Source: Beroe forskalii (lineage: Eukaryota > Ctenophora > Nuda > Beroida > Beroidae). From it: a stretch of 64,000 nucleotides of DNA. The stretch is taken from the NCBI GenBank assembly GCA_011033025.1, contig WFMF01000149.1:124001-188000 (forward strand), read 5' to 3'. Below are positions 13,441 to 53,035 of the stretch, in pieces; the first letter of the stretch is position 1, and every line of letters starts with the position of its first letter. The translations under genes and the position numbers were made by a program. Below the pieces are notes generated by a model that saw nothing but the letters and a program-made list of their open reading frames with translations, made no database searches and was not told where the DNA came from.

Positions 13441-15188
13441 CAACTAAGTTGCTAAGCAACAAAGGGGTTATTGTTGCTTGCTCGTGATACGCTGATGATT
13501 TAAGACGAGATAACTTGTTTATTTGTTTTTAGATGAAATTTTAAATATGCTGTTGTATTGAGCTGTGGAAATTTATGGGAAATTTCTTCAAATTATTCAT
13601 CGGCACCGCTGATTTGAGCGTTTGAATAGTTTGTACCCATTTAAAATGATTTAACTTATCACTTATCGATTCATATGTCCTCTTTTCATTAGGGCGGATA
13701 TGCCTATTCAAATTTCAATAACTTCAACTGTAATATAGTGCCATCGATAATTTATTGTGTTAAATGCAGGAGAAGATTGAATTTAAATTGATCATACTTT
13801 TGTACATTTTCATGCATTTTATAGACCAGGGGGAACTTTTAACTAAGCCGGACATAAGCGCATATTTAATTTTAATTTAGCTCAGTGTTTTGCTTTCGTG
13901 TAATTAGTTTGTCTAAAATCCTTAACCAAGGCTTCTGTCTGAATTGTCTGTAATTTCATTCATCAAAATATTATATCAACATCAATTAATGTGACAACAA
14001 ACTAATTTGAGCCCTGTGATCTTTGATCTATCGTAATTGGTTTTCAGTAAAACTGTTTTTCGTGAGATAGCCTTGTTTTACTCTTCTAAATTATCATTTC
14101 AGTAATCGACCGCAACCCTGGCCCAAGGCCCATTAGGGCCTGGATCTTTTATATAGTAGAAATGATTCTGAGGAGTTATATCCTGAATCTTTTTGTCCGA
14201 TATTTTATTTGGTGCGACTTGAAATAAATTTAATTTATCTTTTCACACATTTCTGGATACTTGATCATTTGATAACAATTACCAATCAATCTAATCCCCT
14301 TTCTAACTGAGCTAGGAAGGCAGCACTAACGAAGAATAACAACACATCTAATCCTTTCAATGCTATTCTATTGACTATTCTATACTTCATCAGATCCTGC
14401 TTTTAAATTCGCATAATGTCTGAGAATGTGATTACAAAGTGAACTTCCGTGGGAAAGTTTCCAGATAATTGCATACAAGAAGATGTGTTGTTCAAACAAG
14501 TCATACGAATTTAAGATTAAATTTCAATTCTTACTTCAAAACTTCGAACAGAAAATCGTATTAGTCTATGACTGCTCCTGGCGTGAATGATTAAATGAAT
14601 TACATCAATTGACGGGAAATCAAAAGTTAACCAATTGCTTCTAGATCCAGTTTCTAGATTGATAGCCCCACTCTTCAGACTCCCTAGTTACTGATTGCTC
14701 TGAATATTACTTGATAGGACTGATGGGGGTCGTTAGTATAACAAATATAAATGTGAAATATTTCTATCATAACCAGAAGTATTGGAATGGTTGATGAGTC
14801 AAGAAACCGTATATGAGTGGTGATTGTGGCAGCTATGTTTTAGGTGATTCTTGGTTCTTCATGACCTTGGTATCATTTCTGATCTCCGGTTCTATCTGAA
14901 TGTTTGGTTTCAGTTGAGCTGTGTATCATATTCTGTTTGTATCAGCTTGAAGCCACCGTCCTAGTTCAATGTAGTGGAGATTGTGTACAGATTTCTTTGT
15001 TGATATTGCCATTGGTCAGTGGTCAATGGTCATCCATGGTAGGTGTGTTTGTGAATCGATCTGGTTATGCAAGCTCTAAAATGATGTCCCCTTCAAGATG
15101 ATTTACATTCTTGTCACTGCGTTAAACGCATGTATTGCACTTGATTCTCGTACCATGAAACACGCCATTTGTCCTTAACTCGCCCTAG
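13441..15188 (+). other. Nup98-96 3' flank and region upstream of SNF
   Basis: No coding sequence recognised in about 1.7 kb. An AATAAA near 14223 could be a poly(A) signal. ATATCCT at 14178-14184 and TCCTTAACTC at 15172-15181, which lies 7 bp upstream of a CTAG ending at 15188, resemble U12-type intron signals; see the findings. Confidence 0.35.
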
Positions 15189-15321
15189 TAATCACAGAGT
15201 GCTGGAAAACCCCCCATTCCTGATCCCCTGCCTCTCCTAAGCTCCCGTAGTGCCCCCTAGATCCCCTGATTGCAGCCCTAGAGCCCCCTGATTGCAGCCC
15301 TAGAGTCCCCTGATAGCAGCC

Positions 15322-18300
15322 ATGGGCAGAGGAATGTACCCACCCCAACCTACCATCTACGTCAACAACCTCTGTGACAAAGTCAAGAAGGAAGGTCCGT
15401 ATTATAGAACAAGCAATAGAACTGATTGTATGATTTCTTATATCGATGGTAAGTCATTTTGTTCAAGATGGAAGCTGGAGCCTATAACTCGGGTAATAAA
15501 TGGTAGTATTCTTACACTTTCTATCTTTCTTCAATCCATTGCACTACGGACTTTTCAATATGTATCCTGATGTTGTATTCAAGGCCTGGTAAGCCTCAGC
15601 TCTTCAAAGTTTTCCTAACTCTGGCATTTAAACCTGGTAAGTCACTTGCAAAGCTGTGAATTGGTAAGTTCATCTGAGTCAATCTTTTGTTAAAGCATCG
15701 GCAGTTTTATTCCGTGATTTGGCTTGGTAAGTCCCCAGTCGGTTTTTGGTAAGTTTCCACTCGGGCTTTGGTAAGTTTCCACTTGGGTTTTGGTAAGTTT
15801 CCACTCGGGTTTTGGTAAGTTTTTCTTGATATTTGATCACTTTCTTCTTGGCCTTGGTAAGTTTGTGCTCGGATTTCGGTAAATTTCGCTTGGTTCCTGC
15901 TTGGCCTTGGTAAGTTTACGCTCGGATTTTGGTAAGTTTGTGGTTGGTAAGTTCCTCTCTTCCTGCTTGGCCTTGGTAAGTTTTTACTTCGCATCCCGGC
16001 TCTCATTCAGTGGAAGCTACGAAGGTAAAACGGTAATATCAATCTTGAATCGTTCATCCATTGCACAACGGACGTATTTTATGCCTTTTTACTCGCTATT
16101 CCCATTTTCCTTCGCATTGAATTGGCACATATCGTTTGATGGTAAGTATTTGGTATTGGTAAGTTGAATGCTCTAGAACGTGGTAAATTTTCATCCATGG
16201 AATGGTAAGTTTAATATCAATCATCAAACAGCTTCTTCTTGTCCCTTTTGGTAAGTTTTCGTCGGATCCCATTTGGTAAGTTTTCGTCGGAACAGTAAGT
16301 ATCATTGCATGGTAAGTTGAAGCTTTTCTCAGTTTAGCTTTGGTAAGTCTGATCATTGGTAATTACAAGTCAGCATGGTTGTTTGGTAAGTTTGATCTTC
16401 GGGTAAGTTGATGTTCGAGAATCATCTGATGTCTGCACCTCTTTTGGTAGCTACGAATGGTAATACGGGAGTATGACTTAAGAATTAAAAAATTAGCTCA
16501 GCAAGAAAAACCCTACAAAATTTTGTATGCGTTGGGTGTCAAACTGTAATGATCCAAACTCTAGGTCAGCGAATTTAGATATACATCATTCTTAGCGAAA
16601 AACACACATTTTTCTTTCCCCTGAGACGATTTCTCCTTAACAAATTCCATAGAAAATGATGCAGCAACACGCCCAGCCCCCAGTCCCCCCTTCCCAAACC
16701 CTGTACATTAACAATCTCAACGAGAAGGTCAAACTGGAAGGTTCGTTGACTTATATTTGGCAAAATTTGTAATAAATGTTCAGCGTTGCGTTGTAATTAC
16801 AATTACAATTTCACCTGATTTTCTTTTTTCGATTCAGCCTCCGGCTGATAAAAATGTACAAAGAATATCTCGTCTTTACTACCCCTTTTCCCGAATGGAA
16901 AGTAATTTCAAGTTGAAAGGGTTGATCCGTTGATTTCAATTTCAGAACTGAAGAAATCGTTGTACGCCATTTTCTCTCAATTCGGTGAAATTCTCGAGAT
17001 CGTTGCAGCCAAGAACCTGAAGGCCAGAGGACAAGCGTTCGTAGTGTTCAAAGACGTGAACAGTGCGTCAAATGCTCTGAGATCCATGCAGGGCTTCCCT
17101 TTCTATGAGAAACCAATGAGGATAAAACGATTAGGAACAAACTACTGTGCATGTTACAGCGCATCTTGAACTAATTTGAAAATTTACGCATCAAAGTTTT
17201 CAAACGGTGAAACGTTTCACATATTTTTGTGATAAAAATAATTCCCTGCAGAGGATAAACTATGCCAAGAAGAAATCAGACGCAGTAGCTAAGTTAGATG
17301 GTTCCTATGTAGCTAAGGATCATGCAAAGAAAGGAGCTAAAGACAAGAGAAAGGCCCCAGAGCAAGGTAAAGAGATGCTTACTGATATCGGGATGCGATT
17401 CTCTCAGAGATTACATAACTTTGCCTCATATTCCCTACCCATTCTTCTCCAATCACCCAATAGAATCCCTCCTAACCTACCTCAGTACATCCCTTCTTAT
17501 CCACCATTCTCCCCAGGCGGTGATGCTAAGAGAGTGGCTGAGCAGGTGCCACCCATGATGGGTATGATGATGGGGATGCCACCCCCGGGCATGGCACCTC
17601 CAGCCGCCGTGGTGCCACCTCCCAGACCCGGCCCTCCGGCACCACCCCAGAGAGACGGCAGCGAGGTGCCACACAAGATCCTATTCCTTCAGAACCTGCC
17701 TCAGGAAACCACCAAGATGATGCTCAACATGCTATTCGAACAGTGAGTATTTCAAGTGTTCTGCTGTTAATTGTGGTATTCTTCCTATCCTTAACTTGGC
17801 TATAAAGAATTTGATTGTCTGAGTCGGTGCTTGCAACGCCCATAAAACTTGTCATTTCGCTCGGATTTTCATCCTGACACGTATCCGTATTTCCTACACT
17901 TTGTATGACGTGATCCTAATCAGCAGTGTCAAGTCATGTGACTTTTGCCGCCTTTGTACATTCAAATGCGCGGCTCAAAATTCACGTTTGCGTAACGCGC
18001 GGCGACATTTCGATTCACAGATGCCCTTTGACTCAACATTCCAAAAAGCACACAATCTGTGCGCGTTGGGTGCACTGGAATGTCCAAAAGCGCGCGACGG
18101 ATGTTTGAAATATTTGCTCAAAATTCGTATCAAAAATGCCCCACAAACCTAACCGACCGTTTTTCAGGTTCCCTGGTTTCAAAGAAACGCGTCCAGTGCC
18201 CGGAAGACACGACATCGCATTCGTGGAATTCACAACAGACAATCTGGCGTCCCAAGCAAAACAAGCCCTCAACCACTTCAAAATAACCCCAACAAACGAC

Positions 18301-18327
18301 ATGCAGATATCATTCGCCAACAAATAG
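15322..18327 (+). CDS. SNRPA: SNF-type U1A/U2B'' snRNP protein, two alternative first exons
   Basis: RNA-binding protein of U1 snRNP (and of U2 in animals with one SNF gene); it binds snRNA hairpin loops in the nucleus. Exons: 1A 15322-15394 ([20 protein letters not shown]) or 1B 16656-16740 (..[17 protein letters not shown]); then 16946-17118/17120, 17252/17254-17366, 17517-17742 and 18168-18327. Both first exons carry the RNP2 strand and end in phase 1, so each joins [20 protein letters not shown]1 reads RGQAFVVF. A Met/Pro-rich linker follows, then RRM2 ([21 protein letters not shown]). Length is 248 or 252 residues, near the family norm. The junction inside RRM1 lacks a GT/GC donor. Choice between 1A and 1B is inference; 1A could also be a decaying duplicate. 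Confidence 0.93.
15445..16412 (+). repeat. Array of about 22 consensus 5' splice-site motifs (GGTAAGT)
   Basis: Between SNF exons 1A and 1B the sense strand carries GGTAAGT about 22 times by eye (for example 15449, 15724, 15747, 15769, 15791, 15813, 15908, 16202, 16249, 16274, 16384). Spacing is partly regular at 22 bp (GGTAAGTTTCCACT.GGGTTT) and elsewhere irregular. Several diverged copies (GGTAAAT, GGTAATT) are also present. The motif pairs with the 5' end of U1 snRNA. No coding sequence is seen here. Confidence 0.85.
15538..15544 (+). promoter_or_regulatory. ATTGCAC, candidate U1A/SNF binding heptamer
   Basis: AUUGCAC is the loop heptamer bound by U1A in U1 hairpin II. In vertebrates U1A also binds related boxes in its own transcript. 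Here it lies in the SNF intron. Other sense copies are at 15134-15140 and 16060-16066; this one and the 16060 copy share flanks and look duplicated. Binding is inferred from the motif only. Confidence 0.35.
17119..17253 (+). other. SNRPA: Non-canonical intron in SNF RRM1 (GA-AG or AG-AG)
   Basis: The conserved protein PMRI-NYAK requires joining ..CCAATG.. to AGGATAAACTATGCC. The sequence AGGATAAA occurs on both sides (17119-17126 and 17252-17259), so the exact junction is ambiguous. None of the possible junctions gives GT-AG, GC-AG or AT-AC; the best are AG|GATAAA..AG and ATG|AGGATA..CAG. Retention leads to a stop at 17169, leaving RRM1 alone. Confidence 0.6.
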
Positions 18328-18699
18328 GACACTGGTGTCCGGACATTTACTTTTACTGTGTCGCGTGTATAATTGGAAGAGGACATTATATTTGACTAGA
18401 AGGCTGCAATGTCATGAAGCGAGTTAAAACGATCAGATAATTTTATTTCTTATTTTGGAAGGCTGTTATAACACACATGTTTTAATATTTGAATTTCTTA
18501 AACGGTTGTTTCATGTTTCCATATGCTTGAATGAAAATAACTCAAATTCTGACCAAAGAATCACTGAATTAGAAACTTGAACTATGATAGACTTAGCAAA
18601 TAAACATAAAACTGAAGCAATATTTACAGAAACCTACGGCACGATTAAAAAACGCACGGCCTAAATTTCACCTAACGCCCAAATTCCACCTAAGGTTGG

Positions 18700-18906
18700 C
18701 GGCAAATGAAAATACACTTGACTGGAAAAATGTGGATCTTCCATGGGCAAAATAAAAAGAATTGATCATTCAGGCCGGCTGAGGGTCGTCCAGCATATCA
18801 TTTTATGATAAGTTCAACCGTTCTCAGCTGGCTCAGATAAATAATTCTTTTTATTTTGTGGATAGAAGACACTCAAATTTTCAGTCAAGTGTATTTTCAT
18901 TTGCCG
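18700..18906. repeat. Inverted-repeat element between convergent SNF and SNRNP25
   Basis: GGCAAATGAAAATACACTTG at 18701-18720 is inverted at 18886-18905. A second inverted pair, AAAATAAAAAGAATT, lies inside each arm. Each arm therefore supplies AATAAA: at 18751 on the + strand and at 18850-18855 on the - strand. The right arm ends 6 bp from the SNRNP25 stop codon, so the hairpin makes up its 3' UTR. Likely a MITE; no target duplication was resolved. Confidence 0.75.
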
Positions 18907-31404: not shown

Positions 31405-31409
31405 CTGAG

Positions 31410-32945
31410 GGTGAAATGTGGGGTACGAGTATTTGGGATACCTGGGGCATATGGGGTGAAATGTGGGGCACGAGTATGTGGGATACCTGGGGCACATGGG
31501 GTGAAATGTGGGTACGAGTATGTGGGGTACCTGGGGCACATGGGGTGAAATGTGGGGTACGAGTATTTGGGATACCTGGGGCATATGGGGTGAAATGTGG
31601 GGCACGAGTATGTGGGATACCTGGGGCACATGGGGTGAAATGTGGGTACGAGTATGTGGGATACCTGGGGCACATGGGGTGAAATGTGGGGTACGAGTAT
31701 TTGGGGTACCTGGGGCACATGGGGGAAATTTGGGGTACGAGTATGTGGGATACCTGGGGCACATGGGGGTGAAATGTGGGGTACGAGTATGTGGGGTACC
31801 TGGGGCACATGGGGTGAAATGTGGGGTACGAGTATGTGGGATACCTGGGGCACATGGGGTGAAATGTGGGTACGAGTATGTGGGATACCTGGGGCACATG
31901 GGGTGAAATGTGGGGTACGAGTATGTGGGGTACCTGGGGCACATGGGGTGAAATGTGGGTACAGTATGTTAGGTACCTGGGCACATGGGGCGAAATGTGG
32001 GAGTACAGTATGTGGGGTACCTGGGGCACATGGGGTGAAATGTGGGTACAGTATGTGGGATACCTGGGGCACATGGGGAGAAATGTGGGGTATGTGGAGT
32101 ATGTGGGTACCTGGGGGTGAAATGGGGTGAAAATGGTATGTAGGACACCTGGGGCATATGGGAAATGTGGGGTACAGTATGTGGGTACCTGGGGCACATG
32201 GGGTGAAATGTAAATTTACAGGTATGTGGGATACCTGGGGCACATGGGGTGAAATGTGGGTACGAGTATGTGGGGTACCTGGGGCACATGGGGTGAAATG
32301 TGGGGTACGAGTATGTGGGGTACCTGGGGCACATGGGGTGAAATGTGGGTACGAGTATGTGGGATACCTGGGGCACATGGGGTGAAATGTGGGTACGAGT
32401 ATGTGGGATACCTGGGGCACATGGGGTGAAATGTGGGTACGAGTATGTGGGGTACCTGGGGCATGGGGTGAAATGTGGGGTACAGTATGCAGGGCACATG
32501 GGGTGAAATGTGGGTGCAGTATGTGGGATACCTGGGGCACATGGGGTGAAATGGTACGAGGTGTGGGGTACCTGGGGCACATGGGGTGAAATGTGGGTAC
32601 GAGTATTTGGGGTACCTGGGGCACATGGGGGAAATGTGGGGTACGAGTATGTGGGATACCTGGGGCACATGGGGTGAAATGTGGGTACGAGTATTTGGGG
32701 TACCTGGGGCACATGGGGTGAAATGTGGGTACGAGTATGTGGGATACCTGGGGCACATGGGGTGAAATGTGGGTACGAGTATGTGGGGTACCTGGGGCAC
32801 ATGGGGTGAAATGTGGGCACGAGTATGTGGGATACCTGGGGCACATGGGGTGAAATGTGGGTGAGCGGGATACCTGGGGCACATGGGGTGAAATGTGGGG
32901 TACGAGTATTTGGGGTACCTGGGCCCTGGGGCATATGGGGTGAAA
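31410..32945. repeat. 43-bp minisatellite, about 36 copies
   Basis: The unit is roughly GGTACGAGTATGTGGGGTAC plus CTGGGGCACATGGGGTGAAATGTG, written here in two pieces. Copies vary by small indels. The array abuts the 3' splice site of the first kelch exon (31404), whose polypyrimidine tract CACATTTCACCCTCAG resembles the unit. All frames across it are open because the unit lacks stops in most frames, so the long ORFs are not evidence of a gene. Confidence 0.9.
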
Positions 32946-51529: not shown

Positions 51530-53035
51530 GAAATACTAGCTACTTTTCTTACACATAAATACTAGCTACTTCTGCTTTCTTACACATAAATACTAGCTAC
51601 TTCTGCTTTTCTTACACATAAATACTATAGCTACTTCTGCATTCCTTACACATAAATACTAGCTACTTAATTACACATAAATACTAGCTACTTTTATTAC
51701 ACATAAATACTAGCTACTTTTCTTACACTTAAATACTAGCTACTTCTGCATTCCTTACACATAAATACTAGCTACTACTGCATTTGTTACACACAAATAC
51801 TAGCTACTTTTCTTACACATAAATACTAGCCACTTTTCTTACACATAAATACTAGCTACTTCTGCATTTCTTACACATAAATACTAGCTACTTCTGCTTT
51901 TCTTACACATAAATACTAGCTACTTCTGCTTTTCTTACACATAAATACTAGCTACTTCTGCATTTCTTGCACATAAATACTAGCTACTTCTGCATTTCTT
52001 ACACATAAATACTAGCTACTTCTACATTTCTTACGCATAAATACTAGCTACTTCTGCATTTCTTACACATAAATACTAGCTACTTCTACATTTCTTACAC
52101 ATAAATAATTGCTACTTCTGCTTTCTTACACATAAATACTAGCTACTTCTGCTTTTCTTACACATAAATACTAGCTACTTCTGCTTTTCTTACACATAAA
52201 TACTAGCTACTTCTGCTTTTCTTACACATAAATACTAGCTACTTCTGCATTTCTTACACATAAATATTAGCTACTTCTGCATTTCTTGCACATAAATACT
52301 AGCTACTTCTGCATTTCTTACACATAAATACTAGCTCTACTTCTGCATTTCTTACACATAAATAATAGCTACTTCTGCATTTCTTACACATAAATACTAG
52401 CTACTTCTGCTTTTCTTACACATGAATACTAGCTACTTCTGCATTTCTTGCACATAAATACTAGCTACTTCTGCATTTCTTACACGCATAAATACTAGCT
52501 ACTTCTGCTTTTCTTACACATAAATACTAGCTACTTCTGCTTTTCTTACACATGAATACTAGCTACTTCTGCTTTTCTTACACATAAATACTAGCTACTT
52601 CTGCATTTCTTACACATAAATACTAGCTACTTCTGCATTTCTTGCACATAAATACTAGCTACTTCTGCATTTCTTACACATAAATACTAGCTCTACTTCT
52701 GCATTTCTTACACATAAATACTAGCTACTTCTGCATTTCTTACACATAAATACTAGCTACTTCTGCATTTCTTACACATAAATAATAGCTACTTCTGCAT
52801 TTCTTACACATAAATAATAGCTACTTCTGCATTTCTTACACATAAATACTAGCTACTTCTGCATTTCTTACACATAAATACTAGCTACTTCTGCTTTTCT
52901 TACACATAAATACTAGCTACTTCTGCTTTTCTTACACATGAATACTAGCTACTTCTGCTTTTCTTACACATAAATACTAGCTACTTCTGCATTTCTTACA
53001 CATAAATACTAGCTACTTCTGCATTTCTTACACAT
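51530..53035. repeat. 31-bp minisatellite, about 48 copies
   Basis: The unit is TTCTTACACATAAATACTAG followed by CTACTTCTGCA. It starts about 20 bp after the donor of the last visible WD40 exon (51512) and runs 1.5 kb with small variation. Confidence 0.92.

What the first reader, a model, noticed from the sequence alone, without database searches (positions are those of the whole stretch)
15445..16412. Decoy-like array of about 22 U1 target sites inside a U1 snRNP protein gene
Seen: GGTAAGT about 22 times on the sense strand in under 1 kb (chance expectation below 0.1), between two alternative first coding exons of SNF/U1A. Known: GTAAGT pairs with U1 snRNA, and vertebrate U1A represses its own mRNA. 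Inference: the array could titrate or sense U1 snRNP, favour splicing from exon 1A or 1B, or suppress premature polyadenylation. A U1-protein gene carrying a U1-binding array is, to my knowledge, undescribed. It may also be only a minisatellite that drifted from a splice site.
Basis: partly seen in the sequence, partly recalled or inferred. Interest (0 to 1): 0.9.

Follow-up and report, generated by a model that had tools for sequence, protein, structure and literature searches.

The report
U1-protein gene intron with U1 sites
In a comb-jelly-like animal genome, one intron of the gene for the splicing protein SNF/U1A carries 22 copies of the sequence that the U1 splicing particle recognises plus two copies of the RNA motif that the protein itself binds, which looks like a self-regulation switch but is untested and may in part be an eroded minisatellite.

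Summary
In detail: 22 GGTAAGT on the sense strand at 15448-16408, in the intron between two alternative first coding exons of the one SNF (U1A/U2B'') gene detected in this genome; relatives point to a ctenophore. GGTAAGT minisatellites also occur elsewhere in this genome (five met). Three things set this array apart. (1) Its flanks are random (flank majority 0.49, against 0.81-0.89 in the five others) while exact cores outnumber one-mismatch cores 22 to 5. (3) The first exons swap RNA-contact residue 19: Asp (1A, as human U2B'') or Glu (1B, as U1A), in all 12 ctenophore-like relatives seen. Best reading: an autoregulatory intron tuning two weak first-exon donors. No RNA evidence or second species was available. 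Main rival: an eroded minisatellite without function.

The parts
15322..15394 (+). SNF exon 1A (coding, [25 protein letters not shown]; Asp at U1A position 19); donor GAAG|gtccgt, weak
   Evidence: joins in frame to exon 2; same N-terminal type in 9 relatives; human U2B'' has NNMNDKIKKEEL
15448..16408 (+). array of 22 GGTAAGT (core TGGTAAGT) plus 5 one-mismatch forms; spacing of exact copies 15-188
15724..15822 (+). regular part of the array: 22-bp unit, 4.5 copies, 89% matches
15534..15551 (+). U1 SLII-like site 1, ATCC-ATTGCACTAC-GGAC (U1A recognition heptamer with closing C-G)
   Evidence: recognition rule from PMC2203988
16056..16073 (+). U1 SLII-like site 2, ATCC-ATTGCACAAC-GGAC; 17 of 18 identical to site 1, flanks no more alike than shuffles
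15495..15500 (+). intronic AATAAA, about 35 bases upstream of SLII-like site 1 (frequency not above background)
   Evidence: one in the intron, 57 on this strand of the window
16653..16740 (+). SNF exon 1B (ATG at 16656, [29 protein letters not shown]; Glu at position 19); acceptor-like tract ending CCATAG; donor GAAG|gttcgt, weak
   Evidence: same type in P0003, P0009, P0123
16946..17118 (+). SNF exon 2 (rest of RRM1)
17252..17366 (+). SNF exon 3
17517..17742 (+). SNF exon 4
18168..18327 (+). SNF exon 5 with stop (end of RRM2)

Best explanation
The intron between first exons 1A and 1B is an autoregulatory RNA region of the SNF gene. SNF protein not taken up by U1 snRNA binds the two AUUGCAC (stem-loop-II-like) sites; U1 snRNP, of which SNF is expected to be a part, docks by base pairing on the GGTAAGT array. 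Crowded U1 on strong but unproductive sites competes with the weak donors of exons 1A and 1B, or activates a nonproductive acceptor, as described for U1-70K. The transcript is then diverted to retained or frameshifted RNA, or the 1A/1B ratio changes, so SNF output follows U1/SNF supply. SHOWN by sequence: the sites, their number and strand, the match to this genome's U1 5' end, the weak donors, the AUUGCAC sites, intact cores with random flanks, and the two first exons with residue 19 switched. INFERRED: occupancy, the direction of the feedback, which first exon is affected, and that the array was kept for this role. It probably began as a minisatellite.
For: Array and statistics. Random flanks: of 26 copies aligned to the 22-bp unit, 20 have flanks of <=5/11 (mean 2.75, background 2.70), mean core 6.8/7, 16 of 20 exact; flank majority 0.49 against 0.81-0.89 in five other GGTAAGT arrays. 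Copies were recognised by their cores, which favours intact ones; what does not depend on that is 22 exact against 5 one-mismatch forms. SLII-like sites: TCCATTGCACNNNGGA 12 times in 216 Mb, reversed control 0, two of them here; the other ten are 1 U1 gene, 4 copies of one repeat, 1 in a palindromic repeat, 4 singletons; of 20,000 intron shuffles 15 have one relaxed hairpin and none has two. The two sites are 17/18 identical, differ only in the loop outside AUUGCAC, and have flanks no more alike than shuffles (P 0.115 and 0.923). U1A contacts AUUGCAC and the closing C-G (PMC2203988). U1 5' end ACTTACC; donors weaker than array sites. Array donors 2-22 spliced from exon 1A to exon 2 would end the protein at 82 aa; 1A+1B inclusion would stop after 43 aa. 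Precedents.
Against: No RNA, CLIP or second species. GGTAAGT arrays occur elsewhere in this genome without a U1-gene link known to me. T at -2 is as conserved as the U1-pairing bases (26/28), which points to shared descent or to another reader of the motif. The SLII-like sites were noticed by eye and the search pattern was then written from them; by the loosest count, ATTGCA[CG] in the intron is 2 against 0.21 expected, P 0.02, and the two may be one duplication. Their stems are weak: the three-pair stem is -0.8 kcal/mol at site 1, the best fold at site 2 is another stem (-2.7), and with the outer A.C and pair the SLII form is +1.7 and +0.5. The sites lie 522 bases apart, not side by side as in PIE. 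Exon 1A must still splice correctly in spite of 22 stronger sites downstream. The other two U1-specific protein genes show no GGTAAGT array in the 3 kb held around the matched domain, and each has three sense-strand ATTGCA[CG] there, so that heptamer is not special to SNF.
Confidence: 0.36

Rival explanations
1. The array is an old minisatellite in a minisatellite-rich genome. A unit containing TGGTAAGT spread locally by slippage or template switching and then eroded; its match to the U1 site, and its place in a U1-protein gene, are coincidence. It is spliced out and does nothing.
For: 90 tandem-repeat rows (some overlapping) in the 64-kb window; a regular 22-bp core block at 15724-15822; five other GGTAAGT arrays met in fetched DNA, with different units; at the one spacing asked, the reversed-word control pair is commoner genome-wide than the GGTAAGT pair (123 against 24); T at -2 shared as by descent.
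Against: Neutral erosion should hit core and flanks alike; here flanks are at background while exact cores outnumber one-mismatch cores 22 to 5. It does not explain the two AUUGCAC sites.
Confidence: 0.4
2. Only the AUUGCAC sites are functional (SNF autoregulation); the GGTAAGT array is a passenger minisatellite.
For: The SLII-like sites are improbable in this intron, whereas GGTAAGT arrays are met elsewhere.
Against: The array shows the same pattern of kept core and lost flanks as the AUUGCAC sites; in human U1A a U1 site and PIE are reported to act together (Guan 2007, title seen as a citation).
Confidence: 0.13
3. The array suppresses premature cleavage and polyadenylation (telescripting) at the intronic AATAAA at 15495, 101 bases after exon 1A, with the nearby AUUGCAC site acting as a PIE-like element.
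For: AATAAA lies about 35 bases upstream of SLII-like site 1; U1 and U1A are both described as inhibitors of polyadenylation (passages).
Against: One AATAAA in 1.26 kb is the background rate (57 on this strand of 64 kb); suppression of an intronic site by SNF would give positive, not negative, feedback (inference).
Confidence: 0.06
4. TGGTAAGT is a DNA element, a homotypic cluster for a transcription factor at an exon 1B promoter.
For: Position upstream of a possible alternative first exon; conserved T at -2 and T-rich flanks beyond the U1 match.
Against: All 22 copies have one orientation, which a DNA cluster would not need; exon 1B has an acceptor-like tract just upstream, so it may not be a transcription start; no factor named.
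Confidence: 0.05

Closest known systems
[quoted passage not shown] start of abstract and passages seen)
   Same: Intron of a U1 snRNP protein gene holding clustered cryptic 5' splice sites that bind intact U1 snRNP and steer the transcript to a nonproductive form.
   Different: Three sites downstream of a defined alternative 3' splice site and sensitive to U1C; here 22 sites with AUUGCAC sites among them, and no shown acceptor or decay.
Vertebrate U1A PIE with a 'bipartite U1 site' (review PMC9977717, passages seen; Guan 2007 seen as a citation only)
   Same: U1A/SNF gene whose own RNA carries AUUGCAC-type sites for the protein and a U1 snRNP site.
   Different: There in the 3' UTR, duplicated sites in one element controlling polyadenylation; here in a 5' intron, sites 522 bases apart among 22 U1 sites.
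USSE of U11-48K and U11/U12-65K (PMC5473595 and PMC8329584, passages seen)
   Same: snRNP-protein genes carrying tandem copies of that snRNP's own 5' splice site target, not used for splicing.
   Different: U12-type sites in a tandem repeat, evolutionarily conserved; here U2-type GGTAAGT, 22 copies, conservation between species unknown.
IFI6 (6-16) minisatellite giving multiple splice donor sites (1995 paper; title seen as a citation, content recalled)
   Same: A tandem repeat whose unit is a 5' splice site.
   Different: Not a splicing-factor gene; here most copies share only the core and no use as donors is shown.
SNF/U1A/U2B'' protein family
   Same: Two RRMs, close to human U1A and U2B''.
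   Different: One gene with duplicated first exons that switch residue 19 (Asp/Glu), where vertebrates use two genes (recalled).

Membership tests
SNF/U1A/U2B'' proteins | two RRMs of this family, best solved matches U1A and U2B'' | tested here: met
U1A PIE-type autoregulatory element | AUUGCAC (or AUUGUAC) sites in the protein's own transcript | tested here: met
   15538 and 16060 on the sense strand, with closing C-G
U1A PIE-type autoregulatory element | two sites side by side in one structure | tested here: not met
   sites start 522 bases apart
U1A PIE-type autoregulatory element | located in the 3' UTR | tested here: not met
   no + strand ATTGCAC between 16060 and 56006, so none in the 3' UTR after 18327
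U1A PIE-type autoregulatory element | bound by the protein and lowers its expression | not testable with these tools
   needs binding assay and knockdown
U1-70K-type regulatory 5' splice site cluster | several 5' splice site matches in an intron of a U1 protein gene | tested here: met
   22 GGTAAGT complementary to the local U1 5' end
U1-70K-type regulatory 5' splice site cluster | nearby regulated acceptor giving a premature stop | tested here: inconclusive
   1A+1B inclusion would frameshift to a stop after 43 aa; use of any acceptor not shown
USSE | tandem U12-type 5' splice sites | tested here: not met
   sites are U2-type GGTAAGT; the U12-type consensus is recalled
minisatellite | head-to-tail copies of one conserved unit | tested here: inconclusive
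   met at 15724-15822, 16242-16291 and 16385-16417, with a looser 131-column repeat 15746-15983; elsewhere only the core is shared
U1 snRNA pseudogene | U1 similarity beyond the SLII loop | tested here: not met
   6 Rfam matches at E<=10 in 14800-18800, none of them U1

The most novel reading that the evidence does not exclude
Ctenophores make a U1A-like and a U2B''-like protein from one gene by choosing between duplicated first exons that exchange the RNA-contact residue 19 (Glu or Asp). The intron between the exons is a two-part sensor: AUUGCAC mimics of U1 stem-loop II read free SNF, and 22 mimics of the 5' splice site read U1 snRNP. AUUGCAG copies, the heptamer of U2 stem-loop IV, just upstream of the U2B''-like exon 1A would add a U2-side arm. 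Together they would balance U1A-type against U2B''-type protein.
Probability: 0.15. Interest if true: 0.86.

Novelty: new variant of a known kind. Interest (0 to 1): 0.6.

Why it matters
If true, control of snRNP-protein genes by the snRNP's own target sites, which the papers seen here describe mainly for human genes, would reach to ctenophores, in a 5' intron rather than a 3' UTR, and with both the protein's and the particle's target in one place. The 1A/1B exons would show a U1A/U2B'' split made by exon duplication instead of gene duplication. Both are directly testable with ctenophore RNA and genomes.

Tried and rejected
Other copies or haplotypes of the intron in the genome: none found (the tool skips very common words). 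U1 pseudogene: rejected. Other 'core-only' motif clusters in 200 kb of the same genome plus the window: 39 clusters of >=8 copies of a 7-mer per kb; besides this one, three have a mean flank majority of 0.49: two are TCCATTG/CAATGGA-rich palindromic stretches that look like copies of one repeat, one is a weak 8-copy cluster. Intron 17119-17251 as a repeated insertion: single copy. Genes for the other two U1-specific proteins: no GGTAAGT array in 3-kb loci of U1-70K and U1C; the wider stretch was not given. One search used a 1B acceptor off by two, so its first line and its '1B acc' rows are wrong and are not used; one search has the corrected join. Comparison with other ctenophore introns was not possible: the tool states that this genome has no relatives held, and the metagenome cap is 0; I did not scan viral contigs or genome contigs, which hold viral and prokaryotic DNA.

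Full report
What was checked. GGTAAGT occurs 22 times on the + strand from 15448 to 16408 and five times in the rest of the 64-kb window. Shuffles of the intron give 0 to 3.

Where it lies. A predicted protein of 252 aa (exon 1B) or 248 aa (exon 1A) has RRMs at both ends. Its best relatives include Bolinopsis microptera 'U2 small nuclear ribonucleoprotein B''-like isoform X2' and Mnemiopsis leidyi, 79% each, with unnamed sequences up to 81%; hence a ctenophore, by inference. The nearest solved proteins are human U1A and U2B''. The whole-genome protein search matches this gene exon by exon and one other place at 31.7 bits and 38% identity. The intron was found once.

Two first exons. Exon 1A (15322-15394) and exon 1B (coding from 16656) each continue in frame into exon 2 and are themselves similar (71% over 49 bases). 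Among close relatives nine sequences have the 1A type (P0001, P0002, P0004-P0008, P0010, P0011) and three the 1B type (P0003, P0009, P0123). Only P0003 (Bolinopsis) and P0007 (Mnemiopsis) carry organism names; the others are called ctenophore-like from their similarity. All nine 1A types have Asp at U1A position 19 and Lys at 23; all three 1B types have Glu at 19 and Leu, Ile or Met at 23. Of 258 proteins held, 208 matched the motif; outside these nine none had Asp 19, and two further sequences had Glu 19 with Leu 23. The lists are the best 120 of each of three searches, so this is not an even sample. Human U1A reads NNLNEKIKKDEL and human U2B'' NNMNDKIKKEEL. Glu19 of U1A contacts G4 of AUUGCAC (PMC2203988, passages). 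That both exons belong to one gene is shown here for this genome only; for Bolinopsis it rests on the label 'isoform X2'.

The array itself. With a looser 11-base model, 28 places with at least 8 matches were found on this strand and 1 on the other; conservation is T 0.71, T 0.93, G 0.96, G 0.93, T 1.00, A 0.93, A 1.00, G 0.86, T 0.96, T 0.75, T 0.68, then mostly background. The T at -2 is as constant as the U1-pairing bases although U1 would pair with A there: this speaks against pure selection for U1 pairing. A regular 22-bp block exists (15724-15822). Of 26 copies aligned to that unit, 20 have flanks at background (2.75 of 11; background 2.70) with cores 6.8 of 7, 16 of 20 exact. These copies were picked by their cores, so core identity is partly built in; the fairer figure is 22 exact against 5 one-mismatch forms in the array. 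In 200 kb of the same genome plus the window, 39 clusters of at least 8 copies of a 7-mer per kb were seen; four have a mean flank majority of 0.49: this one, two stretches of what looks like one palindromic repeat, and one 8-copy cluster.

Evidence against uniqueness. GGTAAGT arrays were met in other places: L003 (86 copies), L004 (11), L008 (18) and two in L027 (10 and 6). L003, L004 and L008 are 3 of the 8 loci cut from 24 places holding a GGTAAGT pair, so they are not a random sample. L027 is 1 of 20 ten-kb stretches taken at set places on eight contigs, all known from earlier hits. All five have conserved flanks (0.81-0.89) against 0.49 here. So the array is exceptional in its lost flanks, not in being an array. 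The genome-wide count could not be obtained: the search was unanswered twelve times.

U1 side. Ten U1 snRNA loci pass the Rfam cut-off, 41 of 3781 candidates having been scored; eight begin ATACTTACCTG and two ATACTAACC. Computed pairing with the U1 5' end is -9.1 for 20 array sites, -11.0 and -11.5 for two, against -6.4 for the exon 1A donor and -5.1 for the exon 1B donor, -6.8 and -7.6 for donors of exons 3 and 4 (no modified bases considered).

The missed feature. At 15534-15551 and 16056-16073 lie ATCCATTGCACTACGGAC and ATCCATTGCACAACGGAC. I noticed them by eye as the U1A heptamer; the searches came after. AUUGCAC plus the closing C-G is what U1A contacts in U1 stem-loop II, and AUUGCAC was also selected in linear RNA (PMC2203988, passages). 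Nine of the ten U1 loci carry ATTGCACACC and one ATTGCACTCC, so these are not copies of the gene; Rfam finds no U1 remnant here. TCCATTGCACNNNGGA, a pattern written from the two sites, occurs 12 times in the genome, reversed control 0: two here, one U1 gene, four copies of one repeat, one in a palindromic repeat, four singletons. In 20,000 intron shuffles, 15 had one relaxed hairpin and none had two; C-ATTGYAC-NNN-G was seen 3 times in 400 kb of strand elsewhere. By the loosest count, ATTGCA[CG] in the intron is 2 against 0.21 expected, P 0.02. The two sites may be one duplication; their flanks are not alike beyond shuffles. The stems are weak, and the best fold at site 2 is another stem, so binding could be to near-single-stranded RNA. 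In the 3-kb loci of U1-70K and U1C no GGTAAGT array is present (one sense copy in the first, none in the second), and each has three sense-strand ATTGCA[CG].

Consequences for the transcript. Joining exon 1A to exon 1B through the acceptor-like CCATAG would stop after 43 aa. From exon 1A, the first array donor (15448) to exon 2 would add 18 aa in frame inside RRM1; each of the other 21 would end the protein at 82 aa. None of these uses is shown.

Known kinds. A cluster of three regulatory 5' splice sites in U1-70K binds intact U1 snRNP and drives a nonproductive isoform (PMC3798272, start of abstract and passages). Tandem U12-type sites act in U11-48K and U11/U12-65K (PMC5473595, passages; PMC8329584, passages). 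U1A binds PIE in its own 3' UTR (PMC9977717, passages), and a 'bipartite U1 site' is reported to act with PIE (Guan 2007: title only, in reference lists). A 5' splice site motif left in an RNA promotes nuclear retention in human cells (PMC4380460, start of abstract and passages). CstF-77 shows a weak donor with an intronic poly(A) site under U1 control (PMC3708835, start of abstract and passages). A minisatellite giving multiple splice donors is on record (title only). For a ctenophore case or for U1A/U2B'' alternative first exons, searches listed nothing relevant; the library holds open-licence papers only.

Verdict. Observation right; novelty claim too strong; function plausible and better motivated by the AUUGCAC pair and the exon switch. 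I give autoregulation through both parts 0.36, AUUGCAC sites alone 0.13, eroded minisatellite without function 0.40, poly(A) suppression 0.06, a DNA element 0.05.

Noticed in passing
17119-17251 (intron between exons 2 and 3): No GT donor fits the conserved protein: AGGATAAA stands at both edges, so the intron would be AG-AG or GA-AG, or the assembly has a small error. Found once in the genome.
   Followed up: partly
15269-15275 and 15291-15297: ATTGCAG, the start of the U2 stem-loop IV loop (ATTGCAGTACC in this genome's U2), occurs twice in a 22-bp repeat just upstream of the U2B''-like exon 1A. With ATTGCAC at 15134, 15538 and 16060 this makes five sense-strand ATTGCA[CG] in 15100-16655 against 0.26 expected (region chosen after the fact, copies partly duplicates). 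It may also be an acceptor-like repeat.
   Followed up: partly
exons 1A and 1B: Both duplicated first exons have weak donors mismatched to U1 at +3 and +4 (gtccgt, gttcgt).
   Followed up: no
L057 and L058 (U1-70K and U1C loci): Three sense-strand ATTGCA[CG] in each of these 3-kb loci, about 0.5 expected at the background rate of 0.17 per kb; one upstream of the U1-70K frame has the form C-ATTGCAC-NNN-G.
   Followed up: partly
L010 and L018 (U1 snRNA loci): Two of ten U1 loci begin ATACTAACC instead of ATACTTACC: possible variant U1 with another 5' splice site preference.
   Followed up: no
L035:8937-9365, L037:7097-7706, L052: Interspersed repeat dense in TCCAATGGATCCATTGGA-like palindromic motifs.
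   Followed up: no
window 28491-54962: Dense minisatellites of many different units, e.g. 44-bp x 35 at 31409-32923, 32-bp x 47 at 51545-53035.
   Followed up: no
L027 (C110:50001-60000): Two unrelated TGGTAAGT-containing minisatellites on opposite strands within one 10-kb stretch.
   Followed up: partly
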